The translations under genes were made by a program, and so were the position numbers. Positions 34,285 to 43,239 of a DNA stretch of 64,000 nt are shown one piece after another. Within the stretch, counting starts at the first letter, position 1. Every line of letters begins with the position of its first letter. The notes beneath the pieces were generated by a model. The model was not told the origin of the DNA and did not search any database. It saw only the letters and a program-made list of their open reading frames with translations. Origin of the DNA: Desulfovibrio sp. DV (GTDB lineage Bacteria > Desulfobacterota > Desulfovibrionia > Desulfovibrionales > Desulfovibrionaceae). The stretch lies in assembly GCF_001936595.1 (NCBI RefSeq), contig NZ_MLBG01000011.1, positions 1 to 64,000 of the forward strand. The letters run 5' to 3'.

Positions 34285-35370
34285 TCAGAAACCGGGGAAG
34301 CGGGCGGTAAACAGGCAGCCGCCGCCGGGGCGGTGCTCGTAGGTGATGTCGCCGCCAAGGCCCCGGGCCACGCCGCGCGCCGCCGCCAAGCCCAGGCCGC
34401 TTCGGGTGTTGGAATCGCGGGTGGAAAAAAACGGCTCGAAGATGCGTCCGGCCACGGCCTCGGCAATGCCCGGCCCGTCGTCGGCCACAGACAGGGTAAA
34501 GGCCCCGTCGCCGGCTGTTGCCTCGATGCGCACCCGGCCGCCGCGTCCTTCCACCGCATCCAGGGCGTTGTCCACCAGCACCGAACCGACCAGCTCCAAG
34601 GCCCCGGGCGGAAAGCAGACGACAAGGGCCTCGGGCACGGCATTGTCGCACACGATGCCAAGCTCCCGGATGCGCCCGGCCCGGTCGGCCAGGACAGCGG
34701 CCACGGCCTCGTGGGGACGGATGTTCGAGGGGCGCGGATCAAAGCGGCCGCCGCACTTGAGCAAGTTCAGCATCACCGACTTGATGCGCGTGCCCTGCCC
34801 GGCAATCTGCCGGGCCGACTGGCGGATTTCGGTTGCGGTCTCGGCACAGGACCCGGGCAGATCGTCGCACAGGTCCTCGATCCAGCCGGCCAGGGTGGTC
34901 ATGACCGTAACCGGGTTGTTGATCTCGTGGGCTGCGCCCTCGGCCACCCGGCCAAGGGCGGCCAGACGGTCGACCTCAATGACACGGACCGATTCGGCCC
35001 GGTCGAGCTTGCGGCCGTAGGCCCGGGTGAGCGCCGCCACAAGCTCGCCGAAGTCCTGGCTTTTGGACAGATAATCGGCTGCTCCGAGTTTCATGCCGGC
35101 CACAGCCGATTCCACGCCGGCCTGCCCGGTCAGCATCAGGGCCTCGCCGGCAAATCCGGCCCCCTTGAGATCGGCCAGCACCTCCAGGCCGTTTTTCCCC
35201 GGCAAATTGACGTCGAGCAGCACCAGGTCGGGCGGGGACGCGGCAGCCGCGCGCAATGCCTCGTCCCCGTCGGCCGCGACCGTCACCGTGAAGTCGCGGC
35301 TGGTCAGCCGCTGCGCCAGAAGCGCCGCGTACAGTGGCTCGTCGTCAACGAGCAGGACGGATATCGGCAT
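34285..35370 (-). CDS. Receiver domain-histidine kinase fusion
   Basis: 361 residues with the receiver first (Asp53 in LLDVNLPG), then a dimerisation domain with His148 in EGAAHEINNPVTV and an ATPase domain (DNALDAVEG, FEPFFSTRD, SGLGLAAARG). There is no membrane segment. This layout lets an upstream kinase control the activity of this one. Start 35370 gives the normal receiver beginning MPISVLLVDDE; an upstream extension is unsupported. Last gene of a minus-strand signalling operon, 86 bases after the preceding response regulator. Confidence 0.92.
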   Translation of the reverse strand: MPISVLLVDDEPLYAALLAQRLTSRDFTVTVAADGDEALRAAAASPPDLVLLDVNLPGKNGLEVLADLKGAGFAGEALMLTGQAGVESAVAGMKLGAADYLSKSQDFGELVAALTRAYGRKLDRAESVRVIEVDRLAALGRVAEGAAHEINNPVTVMTTLAGWIEDLCDDLPGSCAETATEIRQSARQIAGQGTRIKSVMLNLLKCGGRFDPRPSNIRPHEAVAAVLADRAGRIRELGIVCDNAVPEALVVCFPPGALELVGSVLVDNALDAVEGRGGRVRIEATAGDGAFTLSVADDGPGIAEAVAGRIFEPFFSTRDSNTRSGLGLAAARGVARGLGGDITYEHRPGGGCLFTARFPGF

Positions 35371-35456
35371 CGGCCGTCTCCCCCATGGTCCCTGCCTACG
35401 CCCCGCGCCGTGCGGCGCGGCCACGCGCTTGGCCACCCGTCGTTGGACGCAGCGCC

Positions 35457-35909
35457 CTAGTCTTTGTCCTCGTTCAGGATGTCATGAGCCTCATCGAACG
35501 CGCCGGCCTGGGCAAAGGTGGCGGCCACCATGGCGTCGTCGAGCTTGTCGCGGTAGGCCTTTTTCACCGTGCCGAGCAGTTCGTCGATTTCCACCGGCTT
35601 TTTGTGGTAGTGGAAGGCGCCGAGCTTTTTCACTTCCTCTTCGATGGCCTCGTTGCCATGGCCGGTCAAGATGACGACGCGCACCTCGGGGTTGCTCTTG
35701 CGGACCTTGCGCAGCACTTCCATGCCGTCGATGCCGGGCATCCGCAGGTCGAGCACCACGACGTCCGGGGCGTCGGACTGCACCGCCTCAAGGGCTTCCT
35801 CGCCGGAATAGACCACCCGGGAAGGCACATCGCGCATCTTGAGTCGCTCGGACAGGGTGTTGACGAAGTTTTCCTCATCATCGACCAGCAGCAGCTTGAT
35901 CTTTTTCAT
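35457..35909 (-). CDS. Response regulator with short C-terminal tail
   Basis: 150 residues. A receiver (1-120; Asp54 in VLDLRMPG, Thr and Lys conserved in ILTGHGN and HKKP) is followed by a 30-residue tail (FAQAGAFDEAHDILNEDKD) with no DNA-binding domain. AGGAGACTGCC precedes ATG 35909. It likely acts by protein contact inside the operon's phosphorelay. Confidence 0.92.
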   Translation of the reverse strand: MKKIKLLLVDDEENFVNTLSERLKMRDVPSRVVYSGEEALEAVQSDAPDVVVLDLRMPGIDGMEVLRKVRKSNPEVRVVILTGHGNEAIEEEVKKLGAFHYHKKPVEIDELLGTVKKAYRDKLDDAMVAATFAQAGAFDEAHDILNEDKD

Positions 35910-35919
35910 GGCAGTCTCC

Positions 35920-36633
35920 TTATGAGGCCCCGTCCGCCTGGGGCGGACACGAAGCCGGTGGTGTCGTTGGCTGTTCCCGAAAAACAAGGGTCAGGGGTTG
36001 GCCGGGGACGGTCTCGACCCCGGCGGCCCGGGCCGCGTCCAGGCAGGCCTGCCGGGCTTCGTTACACAATTCGCCTTCCCCGGAGGTGAAGGTCACGGCC
36101 AGGGTATCGGCGGTGGCCCGGCAGGCCAGCCGCACCTCCCCGCCCAGGGGCAGATGGGGCAGGCCGGCCAGAAGCGCCAGCAAAACCGGCCCCAGGTAGT
36201 CGGCCCGGCGTATGGCCGGCCAGGCCACGCTTTCTTCGGCCGGCGCAGCCTCCAGGACCGCCGTGATCTTGCGGCGCTTGAGCAGCCGTTCGGCCAGGAG
36301 CAGCACGGCGGCCAGGGCTTCCGGTGGGCTGGCCGGCCGGCCGTCGCGGTCGAGGCTGTGGGCGGCCAGGGCCAGGGCTTCGGTCAGGCCCACGGCCCGG
36401 GCCAGCTGGCCCCGCATCATGGCCAGGAGTTCCACAAACCGCTCACGATACTCAAAGCCGCCCTTGATGCCGAGGGTGCGGCGACGGGTGCGGGCATCGG
36501 CGGCCAGACAATCCTCCATGAGGCCAAAGGCCTGGGTGAAGGTGGCGTAGATGTTCATGAGGTCGTGGCAGGCCGTGCCTGTCACGGTGCCCAGGAACCG
36601 TCCGTCGCCATCTTCAACCTGGGGCATGTTCAT
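35920..36633 (-). CDS. Histidine-phosphotransferase / kinase-like protein lacking ATPase motifs
   Basis: 237 residues. The N-terminal helix TGTACHDLMNIYATFTQAFG carries His23 followed by Asp, like a dimerisation/phosphotransfer helix. The second half resembles a kinase ATPase fold in length and strand pattern but lacks the N-box and both glycine boxes. This is the architecture of ChpT-like phosphotransferases that evolved from kinases. It overlaps the preceding regulator gene by four bases (ATGA) and lies between two response regulators, fitting a phosphate shuttle. No named family match is claimed. Confidence 0.72.
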   Translation of the reverse strand: MNMPQVEDGDGRFLGTVTGTACHDLMNIYATFTQAFGLMEDCLAADARTRRRTLGIKGGFEYRERFVELLAMMRGQLARAVGLTEALALAAHSLDRDGRPASPPEALAAVLLLAERLLKRRKITAVLEAAPAEESVAWPAIRRADYLGPVLLALLAGLPHLPLGGEVRLACRATADTLAVTFTSGEGELCNEARQACLDAARAAGVETVPGQPLTLVFREQPTTPPASCPPQADGAS

Positions 36634-37016
36634 TGGGCCTTCCCTCCGACAGCGGCCGCTTCGGCGATCTTGGCCAGGAGGGCGTCGAGCTCCAGGGGCT
36701 TTAATAAATAGTCAAACGCGCCAAGCTTCATGCCTTCCATGCCGTCACGGGTGCCGGCCTGTCCGGTGAGCAGGATGACCTGGATTTCCGGGTTGGTGGC
36801 CTTTAAGTGGCGCAGGATGTCCAGGCCCTTAAGCCCCGGCATCATGACGTCCATGACCACCACATCGGGTTTTTCGGCCGCGATTTCCCGCAGGGCTTCC
36901 TCGCCGGAATAGACGCAGCGCACCCGCAACCCCCGAAGGGCCATGCGTTCGGCCAGGGTGGCGGTAAATTCCTTCTCATCGTCCACAAGCAGGATATTGA
37001 CGTCGTGTATGCGCAT
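36630..37016 (-). CDS. Single-domain response regulator
   Basis: 128 residues, receiver only: acidic pair near residues 12-13, Asp56 in VMDVMMPG, LLTGQAG and LLKPLEL. It resembles a CheY/Spo0F-type phosphate relay protein. It lies six bases after the kinase gene and overlaps the phosphotransferase-like gene, so it probably receives phosphate from that kinase. Confidence 0.93.
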   Translation of the reverse strand: MRIHDVNILLVDDEKEFTATLAERMALRGLRVRCVYSGEEALREIAAEKPDVVVMDVMMPGLKGLDILRHLKATNPEIQVILLTGQAGTRDGMEGMKLGAFDYLLKPLELDALLAKIAEAAAVGGKAQ

Positions 37017-37022
37017 CGTGTG

Positions 37023-38735
37023 CTACGCCTCGTGTTTGGGATGTTTGGGAAAGCGCAGGGTAAAGGCCGTGCCCTTGTCGACTTCGCTCTCAACGCCGAT
37101 CTCGCCGCCAAGCCGCTTGACGATGCCGTAGGTGATGGACAACCCCAGGCCCGTGCCCTTGGTCTTTTTGGTGGTGAAAAACGGCTCGAAAATGCAGGAG
37201 AGGGTGTCCTTGCTCATGCCGCAGCCGTTGTCGCGCACTTCCACCACCACGCCGTCGGCCTCGCCCCGGGTGCGCACTTCGATGTGTCCGCCGTCGGGCA
37301 CGGCGGCCAGGGCGTTGTTTAAGATATTGAGGAACACCTGCTGCAGCTGGCCCCGGTCGGACACGATGCGCGGAGCGGCGTGGTCGAGATCAAGGACCAG
37401 TTCGATCTTGCGGTGCAGGGCCTCCTGGGTGAGGAAGCCGCTGGTCTCGAAAATCACGTCGTTCAAATCGAGTTCTTCCAGGCTGACATCCAGGCGGCGG
37501 GCAAAGCCGAGCATCCGCCGGGTGATGTCGCGGCAGCGCATGACGGTCTTTAACACCGAGTCGATGAGGAGCAGGTAGCGCTCCTTGTCCGGGAAATCCT
37601 CGCGCAGTCCGATCAGGTCGCGCATGAGCCCGGTCTTTTCGTTGATGACGGCCAGGGGATTGTTGATCTCGTGGGCCACGCCGGCGGCCAGCCGGCCGAT
37701 GGAGGACAGCTTCTGGGCGTGTTCCACCTGGCGCAGGGCCAGCTCCCGGTCCTCCTCGGCCTCGCGCATCCGGCGCAACAGCAAGTCGGTGATCTTGTAG
37801 GAGGCCACAAACACGATCAACACCCCGGCGCAGAAGATGAAGACCAGATCGCCGCGCACCGTGTACCAGGTCCGCAACATCTGGGCCTTGGGCTTGATCG
37901 CCGCCAGCACGAAGTCGCTTTCCGGGAAATAGGTGTAGGCCAGAAAGATGTCTTCGCCGTCGGCGTCCTGCTGCTGCAGCACCGTGGCCTCGAAGGTCGG
38001 CGGCGGCATGGGCAGGGAAAAGGTGTCGAGCACCTTGCCAAAGCGCTGGGAACTGGTCTGGAGAATGCCGGCCCGGTTGAGCAAAAAGGCGTCGGAGCCC
38101 GGTTCCAGGCCCATGGAAGCAATGATCTTGTCGAACTGGTGGGTGTCGAGAGTGGCGCGCACGATAAACGGATCGCCGGATTCCAGGGTGTGGCGCACGG
38201 CCACGACCACGTGGGGAAACTTGCGGAACCCCATGAACACGTCGGAAATATAGCGGCCCTTGACCCGCACCTCGTTAAACCAGGTCTGCTCGGCGTAGTT
38301 GTGGCCCTTCAAGGCATAGGGCCCGACGTAATTGACCAGTTCGCCCTTGTCGTTAATGAGGCCCAGATCGACGAAGCCGACGTATTCGGTCTGCAGGATC
38401 TTGAGCACCCGGGCCAGATCCTTTTCATTGGCCAGCTCGTTAAACGTATAGGCCTGGGCAATGAAGCCCACGGCCGAGGTGCGCTCGGCCAGGAACAGCT
38501 CAAAGGAATTTTTCGACTTGTTGACGATGACCCGCAGCGGATTCTGGATCTCGCGCGACAGGGCCTTCTGGTATTCGTGGTAGTTAAGCCAAGCCATGAT
38601 GGCCAGGGGCAAGGTGGCGGTGATGAGCATCAGGGCCGTGATCTTGCGGCGAAGCGACCGATAGACCCGGGGGGTGACGACCACGTCGGAGGAACTGAGC
38701 CCTTCCAGGTGACGTTTGAATACGGCACGAAACAT
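37023..38735 (-). CDS. Sensor histidine kinase with periplasmic Cache-type domain
   Basis: 570 residues. Two membrane helices (about 32-50 and 297-318) enclose a 240-residue periplasmic region with double-Cache features (VDLGLINDKGELVNYVGPY, PHVVVAVRHTL). Then come a coiled segment, His355 in GVAHEINNPLAVI, and ATPase motifs NILNNALAAV, DNGCGM, FEPFFTTK and GTGLGLSI. It should sense a small periplasmic molecule. It follows the NifX-like gene by two bases and precedes a response regulator by six. Confidence 0.94.
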   Translation of the reverse strand: MFRAVFKRHLEGLSSSDVVVTPRVYRSLRRKITALMLITATLPLAIMAWLNYHEYQKALSREIQNPLRVIVNKSKNSFELFLAERTSAVGFIAQAYTFNELANEKDLARVLKILQTEYVGFVDLGLINDKGELVNYVGPYALKGHNYAEQTWFNEVRVKGRYISDVFMGFRKFPHVVVAVRHTLESGDPFIVRATLDTHQFDKIIASMGLEPGSDAFLLNRAGILQTSSQRFGKVLDTFSLPMPPPTFEATVLQQQDADGEDIFLAYTYFPESDFVLAAIKPKAQMLRTWYTVRGDLVFIFCAGVLIVFVASYKITDLLLRRMREAEEDRELALRQVEHAQKLSSIGRLAAGVAHEINNPLAVINEKTGLMRDLIGLREDFPDKERYLLLIDSVLKTVMRCRDITRRMLGFARRLDVSLEELDLNDVIFETSGFLTQEALHRKIELVLDLDHAAPRIVSDRGQLQQVFLNILNNALAAVPDGGHIEVRTRGEADGVVVEVRDNGCGMSKDTLSCIFEPFFTTKKTKGTGLGLSITYGIVKRLGGEIGVESEVDKGTAFTLRFPKHPKHEA

Positions 38736-38737
38736 GA

Positions 38738-39088
38738 TTATGCCCCGCCTTGGGGAAACAGGATGTCCCCTGAACTCAGCCGTCCCCGGGCCAGACGCTC
38801 CAGCACCGGGTCAAGTTCGCCGGCCACGTTGTCGATGACGTCCACGCGCTTCCAACGCAGGTAGTGGTAGTATTCCTCTTCCACCGCCCCGGCCACCACC
38901 GTATCGATGCCGTGGGCCAGGACATACTCGCACAGGTCTTCGCCGGAATTGCGGGCAAAGATGATCTCCGAACGGGAAACCACCGTGCCAGCATCGTCAA
39001 TATCGCACACCAGGGCCTCGGCCGTCTTGTCAAAACGCCAGGCCACCTCGTTGCCGCGCAGGGCAATCAGCACCCGATGTCCGCTCAT
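38738..39088 (-). CDS. NifX/NifB-type dinitrogenase cofactor-binding-like protein
   Basis: 116 residues with the fold pattern of the dinitrogenase Fe-Mo cofactor family (VLIALRGNEVAWRFDKTAEALV, then YVLAHGIDTVVAGAVEEEYYHYL). In sulfate reducers these small proteins often sit with Mrp/NifB-like ATPases and regulators. Here it is wedged between a degenerate AAA+ regulator (four-base overlap) and a sensor kinase (two-base gap). It may bind a metal cluster or other cofactor and tune the kinase; this is inference from the family and position. Confidence 0.8.
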   Translation of the reverse strand: MSGHRVLIALRGNEVAWRFDKTAEALVCDIDDAGTVVSRSEIIFARNSGEDLCEYVLAHGIDTVVAGAVEEEYYHYLRWKRVDVIDNVAGELDPVLERLARGRLSSGDILFPQGGA

Positions 39089-40362
39089 GACCCGCTCCTT
39101 TTACCGGCCGGGTCTTTCCTGGCCTTGGCCGTTTTGGCTTTGGGCGCGTCCCCGGCCGGTCCCTGCCCGGCGGCCTCGGCCTCGGCCGCAACCGGGCGCA
39201 CAGGCACGTAGACCGGCAGGTTGGCCGGCACGATCAGGGAGGTCTTGGAGGTCATGACGGCGTATTCGACGATGTTTCGCAGTTCGCGCACATTGCCGGG
39301 GTAGGGATATTCGGCCAGGACGCTCATGGCTTCCGGGGAAAATCCCTTGACGTTTTTCTTAAAGCGCTCGGCAAAGCGCTCGGCAAAATAGGCCAACAAA
39401 AAGGGCAGGTCCTCGCCGCGCTCCCGAAGGGGCGGCAAATTGAGGCGCAGAATGCTCAAATGTTTGTAAAAATCCGGGTCGAGCAGGCCTTTTTCCGCCA
39501 GTTCCTCGGGATTTCGCTGGGTGGCGAAAAGCAGCCGCAGATCAAGAGGTTGCGGCGTTTTGCGGCCCTGGGGGCAGACACTGCCGGTGTCGAGAAAGGC
39601 CGCCAGACGCTGCTGCAGGGCCAGGGGCACATCGGAGAGTTCCGGGAAAAACATGCTTCCCCCGGCCGCCTCCTGGAAACGGCCGCGAATCTCTTCCAGG
39701 CCCGCCCCTTCCTCGGCCACCCGGCCAAACAGTTCGGCCTCCAGCAGATTGGCCGGCAAAAACCCAAGGTTCATCCGTAAAAACGGCCGTTTGGCCCGCA
39801 GGGAGCTCTCATGGATCAGTTCGGCAATGAGATCCTTGCCCGTGCCGGTCTCGCCGACCAGGAGCACGGGCCGGTCGGACCGGGCAAACTCCGGCAGCAC
39901 CGAGAGGATGTCCTCCATCACCGCGCTCTTGCCGATCAGCGCCCCCAGGCCGGACTTTTTCGTCAACATGCCGTCGGTCCCCCGCTGGGCCAGTTCTTCC
40001 ACAAAGTCCACGCGGTAGAGGGGTTCGCCGTTGCTGCCGCGCAAAAGCCGGGAGCTTAAGCGCACGGGTATCTTGCGTCGGGCCCGGTTGACGATGTCCG
40101 TGTCCAGGGACTGTTCACAGCCGCCCTGGCGCAGGAGGGGGCAGTCCCGGCCGCACGATGCTGTCCGCAGCACGTGCCGGCAGGGCAGCCCCCGAGCCTC
40201 GTCGAGGGAGAAACCGGTCAACCGTTGCAAATACGCGTTGAGGTGAAGGACTCGCCCGAGGCTGTCGTAGACCGCCGCCCCAAGGGGCATGGCGTCCAGG
40301 AAATCGGGCAAGTCCAGCACATTTTCGGCAAACCAAACCGCCTTGTCCGTTGCTGCCACCAT
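39085..40362 (-). CDS. PAS-AAA+ sigma-54-activator-like protein without GAFTGA and DNA-binding domain
   Basis: 425 residues. The PAS domain (about 15-125) holds four cysteines at 61, 70, 74 and 82, which may bind a metal or Fe-S cluster. The AAA+ domain (about 138-375) keeps Walker A GETGTGKD (170-177) and PYPGNVRELRNIV. The GAFTGA loop is replaced by GAGLEE (219-224), Walker B reads MFFPEL instead of LFLDE, and no Fis-type helix-turn-helix follows; the tail is Lys/Ala/Pro-rich. It therefore cannot be a normal sigma-54 activator and may be a sensory or antagonist subunit. GGAGGAGTA precedes ATG 40362. Confidence 0.88.
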   Translation of the reverse strand: MVAATDKAVWFAENVLDLPDFLDAMPLGAAVYDSLGRVLHLNAYLQRLTGFSLDEARGLPCRHVLRTASCGRDCPLLRQGGCEQSLDTDIVNRARRKIPVRLSSRLLRGSNGEPLYRVDFVEELAQRGTDGMLTKKSGLGALIGKSAVMEDILSVLPEFARSDRPVLLVGETGTGKDLIAELIHESSLRAKRPFLRMNLGFLPANLLEAELFGRVAEEGAGLEEIRGRFQEAAGGSMFFPELSDVPLALQQRLAAFLDTGSVCPQGRKTPQPLDLRLLFATQRNPEELAEKGLLDPDFYKHLSILRLNLPPLRERGEDLPFLLAYFAERFAERFKKNVKGFSPEAMSVLAEYPYPGNVRELRNIVEYAVMTSKTSLIVPANLPVYVPVRPVAAEAEAAGQGPAGDAPKAKTAKARKDPAGKRSGS

Positions 40363-40443: not shown

Positions 40444-40863
40444 CTAGTGTCCTCCGCTGCCGACGATGCCGGAAGCGGCAAAGGCGAGCACCAGGATTTC
40501 CAGCACGGCGATGGTGGCGAAAATCGGCTCCTTCTTCTTCATGTACGCGCCAATGAGCGGCGCATAGCACAGAATGGTCATGCCCGCCAAAAGCACAATG
40601 CCGGTAAAATTGAGGAAATCGCCCTGGCCGATGAGCTTGAACCAGCCCCAGCCCGTGGGCACGTTGCCCTGCTCCAGGTAGACCTTGACCGGCTGGGACC
40701 ACAGCTGGGTCACGGTATCGAGCGGCACATGGGGGGTGACCAGGCCGCTTATGTAGAGCACATAGGTCACGGCCATAAGGGCCAGGGAGCCCCAGCAGCC
40801 GTAAAAAAGCATGTTGGAGTACAGGACCTGTTCAGGAGGGGTCTTCGAGGTATCGAGGCTCAT
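40444..40863 (-). CDS. Small membrane protein paired with TauE-type exporter
   Basis: 139 residues with three clear membrane helices (about 22-42, 82-104, 112-132) separated by a polar loop with several Trp residues. It lies 57 bases after the exporter gene on the same strand. Small membrane proteins of this type are common next to TauE/SafE genes in sulfate reducers, but I cannot name a family. It is probably an exporter subunit. GGAGATTGCC precedes the ATG, with a pentanucleotide repeat immediately before. Confidence 0.75.
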   Translation of the reverse strand: MSLDTSKTPPEQVLYSNMLFYGCWGSLALMAVTYVLYISGLVTPHVPLDTVTQLWSQPVKVYLEQGNVPTGWGWFKLIGQGDFLNFTGIVLLAGMTILCYAPLIGAYMKKKEPIFATIAVLEILVLAFAASGIVGSGGH

Positions 40864-40920: not shown

Positions 40921-41892
40921 TCAACCGATGCCCAGGCCCTTGAGCAGCGCCTTGGCTCCGGCAAAAAGGAGCACGCCGATGACCATGTAGCGGATGAACT
41001 TCGGCTTGGCCTTGGCCAGCAGGCGCACGCCCACGAAGGAACCGAACATGAGGCCCACGATGGACGGAATGGCCATGAGCGGGATGACGCAGCCCTGGTT
41101 CAGGTAGACCCAGGCGGCCGAGGTGTCGGTGATGGACAGCAGGAACTTGGAGGTGCCGACAGCGACCTTGAGCGGCACGCCCATCATGAGGTTCAAGACC
41201 GGGACGTTGGCCCAGCCGGCGCCAAGGCCGAACATGCCGGCCATGACGCCGATGATGATGAACATCAAAAGGCCCGGCAGGGTGCGGTGGGTCTTCCAGG
41301 CATAGTCCTGGCCCGACGAGGCGTCATGGTAGACGCCGTTCATGCCAAGGGCGATACCCAGGGCATCGGGGTTTTTGACCTCAGGCACGGCCACGTTTTT
41401 CGACTTGAGGATCAGGATGGCGATGAAAAGGATGGTGGCGCCCAGGGCGATCTGGACGACGTTGGTCGGCAGGGCCAGACCGATCATGGCTCCGACGATG
41501 GCGCAGGACGAGGCGATAAGGGCCACGGGCAGGGCCAGACGCAGCGAGGCCAGATTGCGTTTGAGCAGACCGGGACCGGCAGCCAGGGCGCCGGCCAGGG
41601 CCACCATCAGGCCCGCGCCGCGCACGAAGTCCAGGTGGAACGGGAAAAAGCCGCTGACCAGCGGCACGTAGAGCACGCCGCCGCCAACACCGGCCAGCAC
41701 CGCGATGATGCCGAGGATGAAGCAGAAAAACAACAAGATGAGGGGCCACATCCACCAGGGGCCGGAGGCCCCGGCCTGGGTCAGGGCCTGGGTGACGGCC
41801 GCGTCGTTCTGGGCCGCCATGGCGTAGACCGCGATCAGCAGGGCAGCCGCGAGGACCGGCAGGCCCGCTTTCAGAAAAATTTGCCGTTTCAT
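40921..41892 (-). CDS. TauE/SafE-family anion exporter
   Basis: 323 residues, about eight to nine membrane helices. The family hallmarks are two similar halves with GVGGGVLYVPL and GLGAGWANVPVLNLMMGVPLK. TauE/SafE proteins export sulfite, sulfoacetate or related organosulfur anions. An N-terminal helix and an extra central loop (residues about 165-200, NPDALGIALGMNGVYHDA) lengthen it. ATG 41892 gives the hydrophobic start MKRQIFLKAGLPVLAA; upstream extension is rejected. It is the first gene after a sigma-54-like promoter. Confidence 0.9.
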   Translation of the reverse strand: MKRQIFLKAGLPVLAAALLIAVYAMAAQNDAAVTQALTQAGASGPWWMWPLILLFFCFILGIIAVLAGVGGGVLYVPLVSGFFPFHLDFVRGAGLMVALAGALAAGPGLLKRNLASLRLALPVALIASSCAIVGAMIGLALPTNVVQIALGATILFIAILILKSKNVAVPEVKNPDALGIALGMNGVYHDASSGQDYAWKTHRTLPGLLMFIIIGVMAGMFGLGAGWANVPVLNLMMGVPLKVAVGTSKFLLSITDTSAAWVYLNQGCVIPLMAIPSIVGLMFGSFVGVRLLAKAKPKFIRYMVIGVLLFAGAKALLKGLGIG

Positions 41893-42012: not shown

Positions 42013-42030
42013 TATCAAGGATTGTGCCTT
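42013..42030 (-). promoter_or_regulatory. Sigma-54-like promoter of the exporter operon
   Basis: On the minus strand AGGCAC-N5-TTGAT matches TGGCAC-N5-TTGCA, with GG at -24 and GA instead of GC at -12. It lies about 120 bases before the exporter start and points toward it. A divergent intact sigma-54 activator supports the call. Confidence 0.55.
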
Positions 42031-42081: not shown

Positions 42082-42118
42082 CGGCAAACATCTGCCGGCC
42101 GGCGGCAATTTTTTGCCG
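42082..42118. promoter_or_regulatory. Two palindromic operator candidates (CGGCAA-N4-TTGCCG type)
   Basis: CGGCAAACATCTGCCG (42082-42097) and CGGCAATTTTTTGCCG (42103-42118) are 21 bases apart, or two helical turns. They lie 55-90 bases upstream of the sigma-54-like promoter, the typical place for activator binding. A third copy lies at 42228-42243. Confidence 0.7.
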
Positions 42119-42201
42119 TTGTCATTTTGGGGCCAATAGCGCATGGTGAGCCGTACCAAGAAATGCCCTGATGCCCGACGCCACGGACGGTGACGCGAAA
42201 C

Positions 42202-43239
42202 ATGATTGATTCCAGCATGTTGCTCGGCGGCAAATATTTGCCGCTGGACGCCGACGACCCCGTCACCGCCGGACAGGCACCGCCGGAGGCCGAATTCCTC
42301 TTTTGTTCCGCCGAGATGCAGGCCGTCTACGACCTCGCCACCCAGATCGCACCCTCCGATGCCTGCGTGCTCATCTCAGGCGAAACCGGCACCGGCAAGG
42401 AACTGCTCGCCCAGTGCATCCACAACTTGAGCCGCCGACGCAAAAAACCCTTTGTCCCGGTCAACTGCGGCGTGCTCAAAGGCGAACTGTTTGCCGACAA
42501 ATTCTTCGGCCACGAGGCCGGCGCCTTCACCGGCGCAGCCAAGCTCTCGCGCGGCATCTTCGAGATGGCCGGCGACGGCACCCTCTTTCTCGATGAAGTG
42601 GGCGAAATTCCCGGCATAAACCAGGTGGATTTCCTGCGGGTGCTGGAAGAACGCTCCTTTCGCCGGCTCGGCGGAGAACGGCCCATCCGCTTTGCCGCCC
42701 GCATCGTGGCCGCCACCAACCGCACCCTCACCGAAATGGTGCGTCAGGGAGCCTTCCGGGCCGATCTCTACTACCGCCTAAACGTCGTGCCCCTTGTCCT
42801 GCCGCCGCTTCGGGAACGCAGCGGCGACATCGTGTTTCTGGCCGAGTATTTCCTGTCCATCTACCGCCAGCGCTACCACAAGCCCGGACTGCGCTTCACC
42901 GAATCGGCCCTGAACGAACTGACCGCCCACGACTGGCCGGGCAACGTGCGGGAGCTTAAAAACCTCATCGAACGCCTCGCCCTGCTCAGCCGCGAAGGCC
43001 CTATCGACGCCGGCGATCTGCCCGAAGACATGCGCCTTGGCGGCGAAATCGCGCCCCGCGGCACAGACCCCGACACAGCCGTCACCCTGGACGAGGCCGT
43101 GCGCCAAGCCAAGACCCAGGCCATCCTGCGGGCCTTTGCCGCCTGCGGCGGCGACCGGACCAAGACCGCCGAACGCCTGGACATAAGCCCCCGCACCCTG
43201 CGCCATCTGGTGCGCGAATTGGGCATTCGAAAGATATAG
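42202..43239 (+). CDS. Sigma-54-dependent transcriptional activator
   Basis: 345 residues. A very short N-terminal region (about 30 residues, no receiver or PAS) is followed by a complete AAA+ domain: Walker A GETGTGKE, the sigma-54-contacting GAFTGA, Walker B TLFLDEVGE and WPGNVRELKNLIERL. A Fis-type helix-turn-helix (about 300-345; GGDRTKTAERLDISPRTLRHL) ends it. With no input domain it resembles PspF and should be controlled by a partner protein, perhaps the degenerate AAA+ protein of the neighbouring operon. ATG 42202 is used; a GTG 12 bases upstream is possible. Confidence 0.93.
   Translation: MIDSSMLLGGKYLPLDADDPVTAGQAPPEAEFLFCSAEMQAVYDLATQIAPSDACVLISGETGTGKELLAQCIHNLSRRRKKPFVPVNCGVLKGELFADKFFGHEAGAFTGAAKLSRGIFEMAGDGTLFLDEVGEIPGINQVDFLRVLEERSFRRLGGERPIRFAARIVAATNRTLTEMVRQGAFRADLYYRLNVVPLVLPPLRERSGDIVFLAEYFLSIYRQRYHKPGLRFTESALNELTAHDWPGNVRELKNLIERLALLSREGPIDAGDLPEDMRLGGEIAPRGTDPDTAVTLDEAVRQAKTQAILRAFAACGGDRTKTAERLDISPRTLRHLVRELGIRKI
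42228..42243. promoter_or_regulatory. Third palindromic operator candidate inside the activator gene
   Basis: CGGCAAATATTTGCCG is a perfect 16-base palindrome sharing both arms with the two sites upstream. It lies at codons 9-14 of the activator gene, where binding could repress its own transcription. Confidence 0.6.

What the first reader, a model, noticed from the sequence alone, without database searches (positions are those of the whole stretch)
39085..40362. Sigma-54-activator relative with broken AAA+ motifs and a four-cysteine PAS domain
GAFTGA and Walker B are lost and the DNA-binding domain is missing, yet the reading frame is intact in an operon. Cys61, 70, 74 and 82 could bind a cluster. 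The intact activator at 42202 has no input domain, so this protein could be its redox-responsive partner or antagonist, like PspA for PspF.
Basis: partly seen in the sequence, partly recalled or inferred. Interest (0 to 1): 0.65.

Follow-up and report, generated by a model that had tools for sequence, protein, structure and literature searches.

The report
Demoted activator partnering its replacement
A gene-switching protein of sulfate-reducing bacteria has lost, in a traceable order, the parts it needs to switch genes on, yet is preserved wherever a second, working switch controls the same sulfur-transport genes, which suggests it now tunes that working switch.

Summary
The ORF at 39085-40362(-) is real: a PAS domain plus a sigma-54-type AAA+ domain, with GAFTGA erased, the Walker B Asp replaced by Pro (Glu kept) and no HTH. 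It lies in a nine-gene operon opposite an intact, input-less activator (42190-43239). The locus matches DVU2956/DVU2957-2964 of D. vulgaris; there the PAS-AAA protein DVU2960 was already flagged (GAFPGA) and shown not to bind the activator's site (PMC4641369).

New here: in 247 genomes of the order, all 49 PAS-AAA proteins beside this activator lack GAFTGA (44 also lack the HTH). All 45 others keep the HTH and 40 keep GAFTGA. On the tree, linkage and HTH loss each occurred once. The decayed AAA+ domain is under strong purifying selection (dN/dS 0.08-0.14). The activator's palindromic site occurs in 37/37 activator loci and 0/43 comparable loci without it.

Best reading: a former PAS activator, demoted to a non-activating partner of the divergent activator. 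Physical contact is inferred. The "four-cysteine" motif is really three conserved cysteines, shared with intact relatives and lost in some degenerate lineages. Fe-S binding is untested.

The parts
39085..40362 (-). PAS-AAA protein (P0001, 425 aa), degenerate bEBP: PAS about 22-125, C61/C70/C74 (+C82), AAA+ 142-387, L1/GAFTGA erased (209-230), Walker B Asp to Pro240, R-fingers lost, no HTH, disordered tail 392-425
42190..43239 (+). Divergent intact sigma-54 activator without input domain (P0002; DVU2956-type), GAFTGA, Walker A/B, R-fingers and Fis-type HTH present
42082..42097 (.). UAS palindrome CGGCAAACATCTGCCG (one mismatch to CGGCAAN4TTGCCG)
42103..42118 (.). UAS palindrome CGGCAATTTTTTGCCG, 21 bp from the previous one
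42228..42243 (.). Further palindrome CGGCAAATATTTGCCG inside the 5' coding part of the activator
42014..42029 (-). Candidate -24/-12 element AGGCACAATCCTTGAT in front of the operon, 67-88 bp from the palindromes
40921..41892 (-). TSUP/TauE permease, first gene of the operon (DVU2958-type; clade B putative sulfate transporter by literature)
40444..40863 (-). 139-aa membrane protein, no Pfam match, always next to the TSUP gene
38738..39088 (-). NifX/NifB-like (Nitro_FeMo-Co) 116-aa protein, start overlaps the stop of P0001; also adjacent to intact PAS-EBPs
37023..38735 (-). dCache histidine kinase (570 aa)
36630..37016 (-). Single-domain response regulator
35920..36633 (-). 237-aa protein, no Pfam match
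35457..35912 (-). Response regulator
34285..35436 (-). REC-HisKA-HATPase hybrid protein, end of the conserved locus

Best explanation
P0001 is a demoted bacterial enhancer-binding protein. Its ancestor was a PAS-AAA-HTH sigma-54 activator paired with a NifX-like protein. After a second, input-less activator (DVU2956 type) came to sit opposite the operon and drive its sigma-54 promoter through CGGCAAN4TTGCCG sites, the PAS protein lost the sigma-54 contact loop and the DNA-binding domain, but kept the AAA+ fold, nucleotide-binding residues and PAS domain. Most likely it now works as a non-activating regulatory subunit: it assembles with the divergent activator through the AAA+ surfaces and, depending on the state of the PAS domain, lowers or gates its activity. 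Because it is made from the very operon the activator drives, this would be feedback. Shown: domain content, order of losses, co-occurrence, promoter architecture, purifying selection. Inferred: physical contact, mixed rings, sign of the effect, and the PAS signal.
For: 49/49 PAS-AAA genes within 8 kb of the activator lack GAFTGA, 44 also lack the HTH; 45/45 without it keep the HTH. Linkage and HTH loss each need one change on the tree, and the no-HTH rows are one side of a branch at 98; intact forms are basal. dN/dS of the decayed AAA+ domain is 0.08-0.14, like the active EBP. Walker A Lys and sensor II Arg are invariant; R-fingers are kept in 41/43 and 43/43 of the other linked proteins. UAS palindromes with a nearby -24/-12-like element in 37/37 activator loci, no such palindrome in 43 others. 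Both genes are absent together in six genomes of the genus. The AF2 model keeps the NtrC1-like AAA+ fold. DVU2960 does not bind the DVU2956 site (PMC4641369).
Against: No direct evidence of contact. Mirror-tree partial correlation of PAS-AAA with the EBP (0.24-0.28) is no higher than with the kinase or receiver. The link arose once, so the 49 genomes are not independent. The older neighbour is the NifX-like protein, which could be the true partner. In Solidesulfovibrio the R-fingers are lost, so the ring argument is weaker there. No sigma-54 promoter was recognised in front of the intact single-activator modules examined, so the ancestral role is inferred. One other lineage (NALPGA) lost GAFTGA without this EBP.
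Confidence: 0.55

Rival explanations
1. P0001 works chiefly with the NifX-like protein P0003 (and perhaps the kinase/receivers) as an ATP- and redox-dependent sensor or assembly factor in the transport/signalling operon, not by touching the activator.
For: The NifX-like gene follows the PAS-AAA gene in all complete linked loci and in 7 of 8 unlinked contexts examined, so this partnership is older. Start/stop overlap suggests coupled translation. PAS-AAA tracks the kinase and RR1 as well as the EBP.
Against: Does not explain why the HTH was lost only where the second activator exists, nor why this input-less EBP is always found with it.
Confidence: 0.25
2. P0001 is a positive co-activator: as FleT does for FleQ, it joins the DNA-binding activator in a mixed ring and changes promoter choice or raises output.
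For: FleT of C. sphaeroides lacks a DNA-binding domain, is expressed under FleQ control and forms hetero-oligomers with it (PMC11999139); HrpR/HrpS and VnfA paralogues also mix (PMC9542535).
Against: P0001 lacks the sigma-54 contact loop, and in Solidesulfovibrio the R-fingers, so it should reduce rather than add remodelling power; only four exact sites exist in the genome, two of them here.
Confidence: 0.2
3. It is a decaying remnant on the way to loss (pseudogene-like), carried along by its operon.
For: Stepwise loss of motifs; long branch in Solidesulfovibrio.
Against: dN/dS 0.08-0.14 over the AAA+ domain and 0.06-0.10 even across the altered L1/Walker B stretch; retained in every genome that has the EBP; lost only together with the EBP in the genus.
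Confidence: 0.04
4. The PAS domain holds an Fe-S or metal site through its cysteines that senses redox state for the activator.
For: C-x8-C-x3-C with a common His63 is near universal in unlinked relatives (C61 44/44, C70 43/44, C74 44/44) and kept in most linked proteins.
Against: C82 is constant only in Solidesulfovibrio; all or part of the triad is gone in g41, part of g10 and g17 although the protein is kept. Metal binding cannot be tested by sequence.
Confidence: 0.3

Closest known systems
DVU2956 / DVU2957-2964 locus of Desulfovibrio (Nitratidesulfovibrio) vulgaris Hildenborough, PAS-EBP DVU2960
   Same: Divergent input-less EBP, sigma-54 operon with TSUP permease DVU2958 and an internal PAS-AAA protein; DVU2956 binds upstream of the operon (PMC4641369, PMC5840216)
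   Different: DVU2960 is the intermediate stage (GAFPGA, HTH retained by the paper; same in L042/L052); the window protein has lost GAFTGA, HTH and R-fingers. Orthology is by architecture and motif; the DvH sequence itself was not compared here
FleT of Cereibacter sphaeroides
   Same: EBP relative without DNA-binding domain, expressed under control of its EBP partner FleQ
   Different: FleT acts positively with FleQ; P0001 lacks the sigma-54 contact motif
HrpR/HrpS, VnfA1/VnfA3
   Same: Two EBPs acting together, likely as mixed oligomers
   Different: From general knowledge both partners carry DNA-binding and activating parts
NtrC of Caulobacter and R. capsulatus, VpsR
   Same: bEBPs without GAFTGA that stay functional
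   Different: They keep DNA binding and act at sigma-70 promoters; P0001 has no DNA-binding domain
PspA-PspF
   Same: Input-less activator restrained by a separate protein encoded in the operon it activates
   Different: PspA is an unrelated coiled-coil protein; P0001 is itself a bEBP relative

Membership tests
Sigma-54-dependent enhancer-binding proteins (activators) | Sigma54_activat AAA+ domain with Walker A | tested here: met
   PF00158 1e-37; GETGTGKD
Sigma-54-dependent enhancer-binding proteins (activators) | GAFTGA sigma-54 contact loop | tested here: not met
   erased in all six Solidesulfovibrio and 38 further linked orthologues
Sigma-54-dependent enhancer-binding proteins (activators) | Walker B Asp-Glu and R-fingers for ATP hydrolysis | tested here: not met
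   P240-E241; D295, H301
Sigma-54-dependent enhancer-binding proteins (activators) | C-terminal HTH | tested here: not met
   no HTH match in window and four linked relatives; HTH_8 found in L042, L052, L074, L077
DVU2960-type PAS-AAA of the DVU2956 locus | Operon position after TSUP and 139-aa gene, before NifX-like gene, opposite an input-less EBP | tested here: met
DVU2960-type PAS-AAA of the DVU2956 locus | Common ancestry with GAFPGA forms | tested here: met
   PAS family one clade at 100, degenerate clade sister to L042/L052
FleT-like bEBP partners | Hetero-oligomer with the DNA-binding EBP | not testable with these tools
   needs binding assay
PspA-like inhibitors of bEBPs | PspA/IM30 coiled-coil fold | tested here: not met
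   no PspA match in Pfam; AAA+ fold in the model
Fe-S PAS sensors | Conserved four-cysteine ligand set | tested here: not met
   three conserved, C82 not
Fe-S PAS sensors | Bound cluster | not testable with these tools
   needs purified protein

The most novel reading that the evidence does not exclude
A bEBP pair produced by division of labour: the original sensor-activator became a non-activating, non-DNA-binding PAS regulatory subunit inserted into the ring of a separate input-less activator, giving sigma-54 control by a pseudo-ATPase in feedback, with the evolutionary intermediates still alive in sister genera.
Probability: 0.35. Interest if true: 0.75.

Novelty: new variant of a known kind. 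Interest (0 to 1): 0.55.

Why it matters
Four of 37 EBPs of D. vulgaris lack an input domain and how they are controlled is largely unknown (PMC4641369). Here a specific, always co-inherited partner is named, with a graded series of natural intermediates that lets one test how an AAA+ activator turns into a regulator. The operon carries a candidate sulfate transporter of sulfate reducers, and the activator is reported to influence biofilm formation in D. vulgaris (via PMC8586430), so its control has practical interest.

Tried and rejected
Mirror-tree distances: inconclusive, all locus genes correlate. Basic C-terminal tail as a replacement for the HTH: mean charge of the last 15 residues is +3.3 in degenerate and +3.3 in intact proteins, dropped. 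Pseudogene: rejected by dN/dS. EBP dN/dS for L107/L108 came from a paralogous stretch on short loci and was ignored. Plasmid search: only distant bEBPs below 60% identity. The window consensus scan for -24/-12 is near chance; only its conservation and spacing carry weight. Sigma-54 signals in front of intact single-activator modules: none convincing. Zhu et al. 2019 is not held; cited only through PMC8586430. A structure of the two proteins together could not be predicted with the tools at hand.

Full report
What is there. The ORF at 39085-40362(-) encodes 425 residues. Pfam finds Sigma54_activat (142-307) and an AAA lid (313-387); PAS models match below their cut-offs, but the AlphaFold2 model (31-row alignment, mean pLDDT 79.8) shows a PAS-like sheet at 28-123 and a complete AAA+ domain, with disorder at 1-10, 126-139 and 392-425. 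Its best matches in the PDB are NtrC1 AAA+ structures. Walker A (GETGTGKD), Walker B Glu241 and sensor II Arg359 are present. The L1/GAFTGA loop, the Walker B Asp, the sensor I Asn, both arginine fingers and the HTH are not.

Locus. TSUP/TauE permease (41892-40921), a 139-aa membrane protein, P0001, a NifX-like protein, a dCache kinase, receivers and a hybrid kinase form a minus-strand operon; an intact input-less EBP is divergent. The same order occurs in seven further genomes of the family and, with truncations at contig ends, in about 40 of 80 loci found through the TSUP gene. Close relatives are named Solidesulfovibrio (L027-L029), so the window is inferred to come from that genus.

Known counterpart. 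Kazakov et al. 2015 (PMC4641369) describe DVU2956, an EBP without N-terminal domain divergent from DVU2957-2964, and DVU2960, an EBP inside that operon with GAFPGA. By EMSA only DVU2956 bound the upstream region. They proposed that EBPs without input domains may need a partner, citing PspA-PspF. DVU2958 is a clade B TSUP protein and a candidate sulfate transporter (PMC5840216). A review reports that DVU2956 lowers biofilm formation (PMC8586430). L052 and L042 carry GAFPGA plus HTH in the same place, matching DVU2960. So the locus and the suspicion of a partner are not new.

Order of decay. Across 247 genomes of the order searched at a 90% completeness limit, the EBP occurs in 49 and a PAS-AAA match in 119. 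Ninety-four PAS-AAA genes were read. All 49 within 8 kb of the EBP lack GAFTGA: 44 have it erased and have no HTH (one of these, L124, is a fragment), 5 have GAFPGA with HTH. All 45 elsewhere keep the HTH; 40 have GAFTGA or GAYTGA, 4 have NALPGA and one GAFPGA copy lies near a contig end in a fragmented assembly. On a tree of AAA+ domains the linked state and HTH loss each need one change and GAFTGA loss two; the 43 rows without HTH are one side of a branch with support 98. Intact forms are basal, GAFPGA forms next. Since these are single events, the counts are not independent trials; the weight lies in long retention and in the direction of the losses.

Residues. Walker B Asp is already Thr (41/44), Ala or Ser in the unlinked proteins, so its loss is ancestral. 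R-fingers are kept in 41/43 and 43/43 of linked proteins outside Solidesulfovibrio and lost in all six Solidesulfovibrio proteins. Walker A Lys and sensor II Arg are invariant in all. An arginine finger works on the neighbouring subunit, so its retention after loss of the sigma-54 loop suggests continued ring assembly (inference).

Selection. Between the window and three congeners the AAA+ part has dN/dS 0.10, 0.08 and 0.14, the altered L1/Walker B stretch 0.06-0.10, the EBP 0.06-0.14 and the TSUP gene 0.04-0.08; the tail is looser (0.33-0.54). This is a maintained protein.

Regulatory DNA. CGGCAAN4TTGCCG occurs at four places in the 4.85-Mb genome, two of them here. A palindrome of this kind and a -24/-12-like element are found upstream of the TSUP gene in 37/37 EBP loci, nearly always 67-69 and/or 86-90 bp apart, and no such palindrome in 43 EBP-less TSUP loci. 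The operon that makes P0001 is therefore very probably driven by the EBP, as shown by EMSA for DVU2956.

Cysteines. C61, C70 and C74 are near universal in intact relatives and frequent in linked ones, but altered in g41, some g10 and g17 genomes; C82 is constant only in Solidesulfovibrio. A metal site is possible but, if present, is an old property of this PAS family, not a device of the degenerate protein.

Mechanism. The best-supported reading is a demoted activator that now modulates the EBP from within the same feedback loop. FleT shows that an EBP without a DNA-binding domain can be a working partner (PMC11999139), and HrpRS and VnfA paralogues show mixed assemblies (PMC9542535). With the sigma-54 loop gone, a damping or gating role is more likely than co-activation. 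The NifX-like protein, which is also next to 7 of 8 unlinked homologues examined, is the main rival partner. A covariation-of-distances test did not decide.

Verdict. The new element is the ordered, one-way decay tied to the second activator.

Noticed in passing
42228-42243: A palindrome like the activator's binding site lies inside the 5' coding part of the activator gene, and an equivalent one recurs at about the same place in most linked loci; possibly autoregulation.
   Followed up: partly
L182, L183, L186, L188 (G228, G225, G241, G234): A second, independent lineage of PAS-EBPs has NALPGA in place of GAFTGA but keeps the HTH and, where looked at, the NifX-like neighbour, without a P0002-type EBP.
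   Followed up: partly
38738-39088 and L192-L199: A NifX-like (Nitro_FeMo-Co) gene is a standing partner of this PAS-EBP family, also in intact forms; its role in sigma-54 control is not known to me.
   Followed up: partly
40444-40863: A 139-aa membrane protein without Pfam match always follows the TSUP/TauE gene, even in loci without the regulators and in an archaeal-labelled contig (L097).
   Followed up: no
L197 9147-10859, L199 9765-11402: Intact PAS-EBP plus NifX-like plus a 50% identical kinase and receiver occur together without the second activator, in L199 after a different TauE gene: a likely ancestral module.
   Followed up: partly
L062, L076, L078, L080, L090 and similar: Several Desulfovibrio (D. 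piger and gut or rumen isolates) have the TSUP-kinase-receiver operon but no EBP, PAS-AAA or NifX-like gene: the three are absent together.
   Followed up: partly
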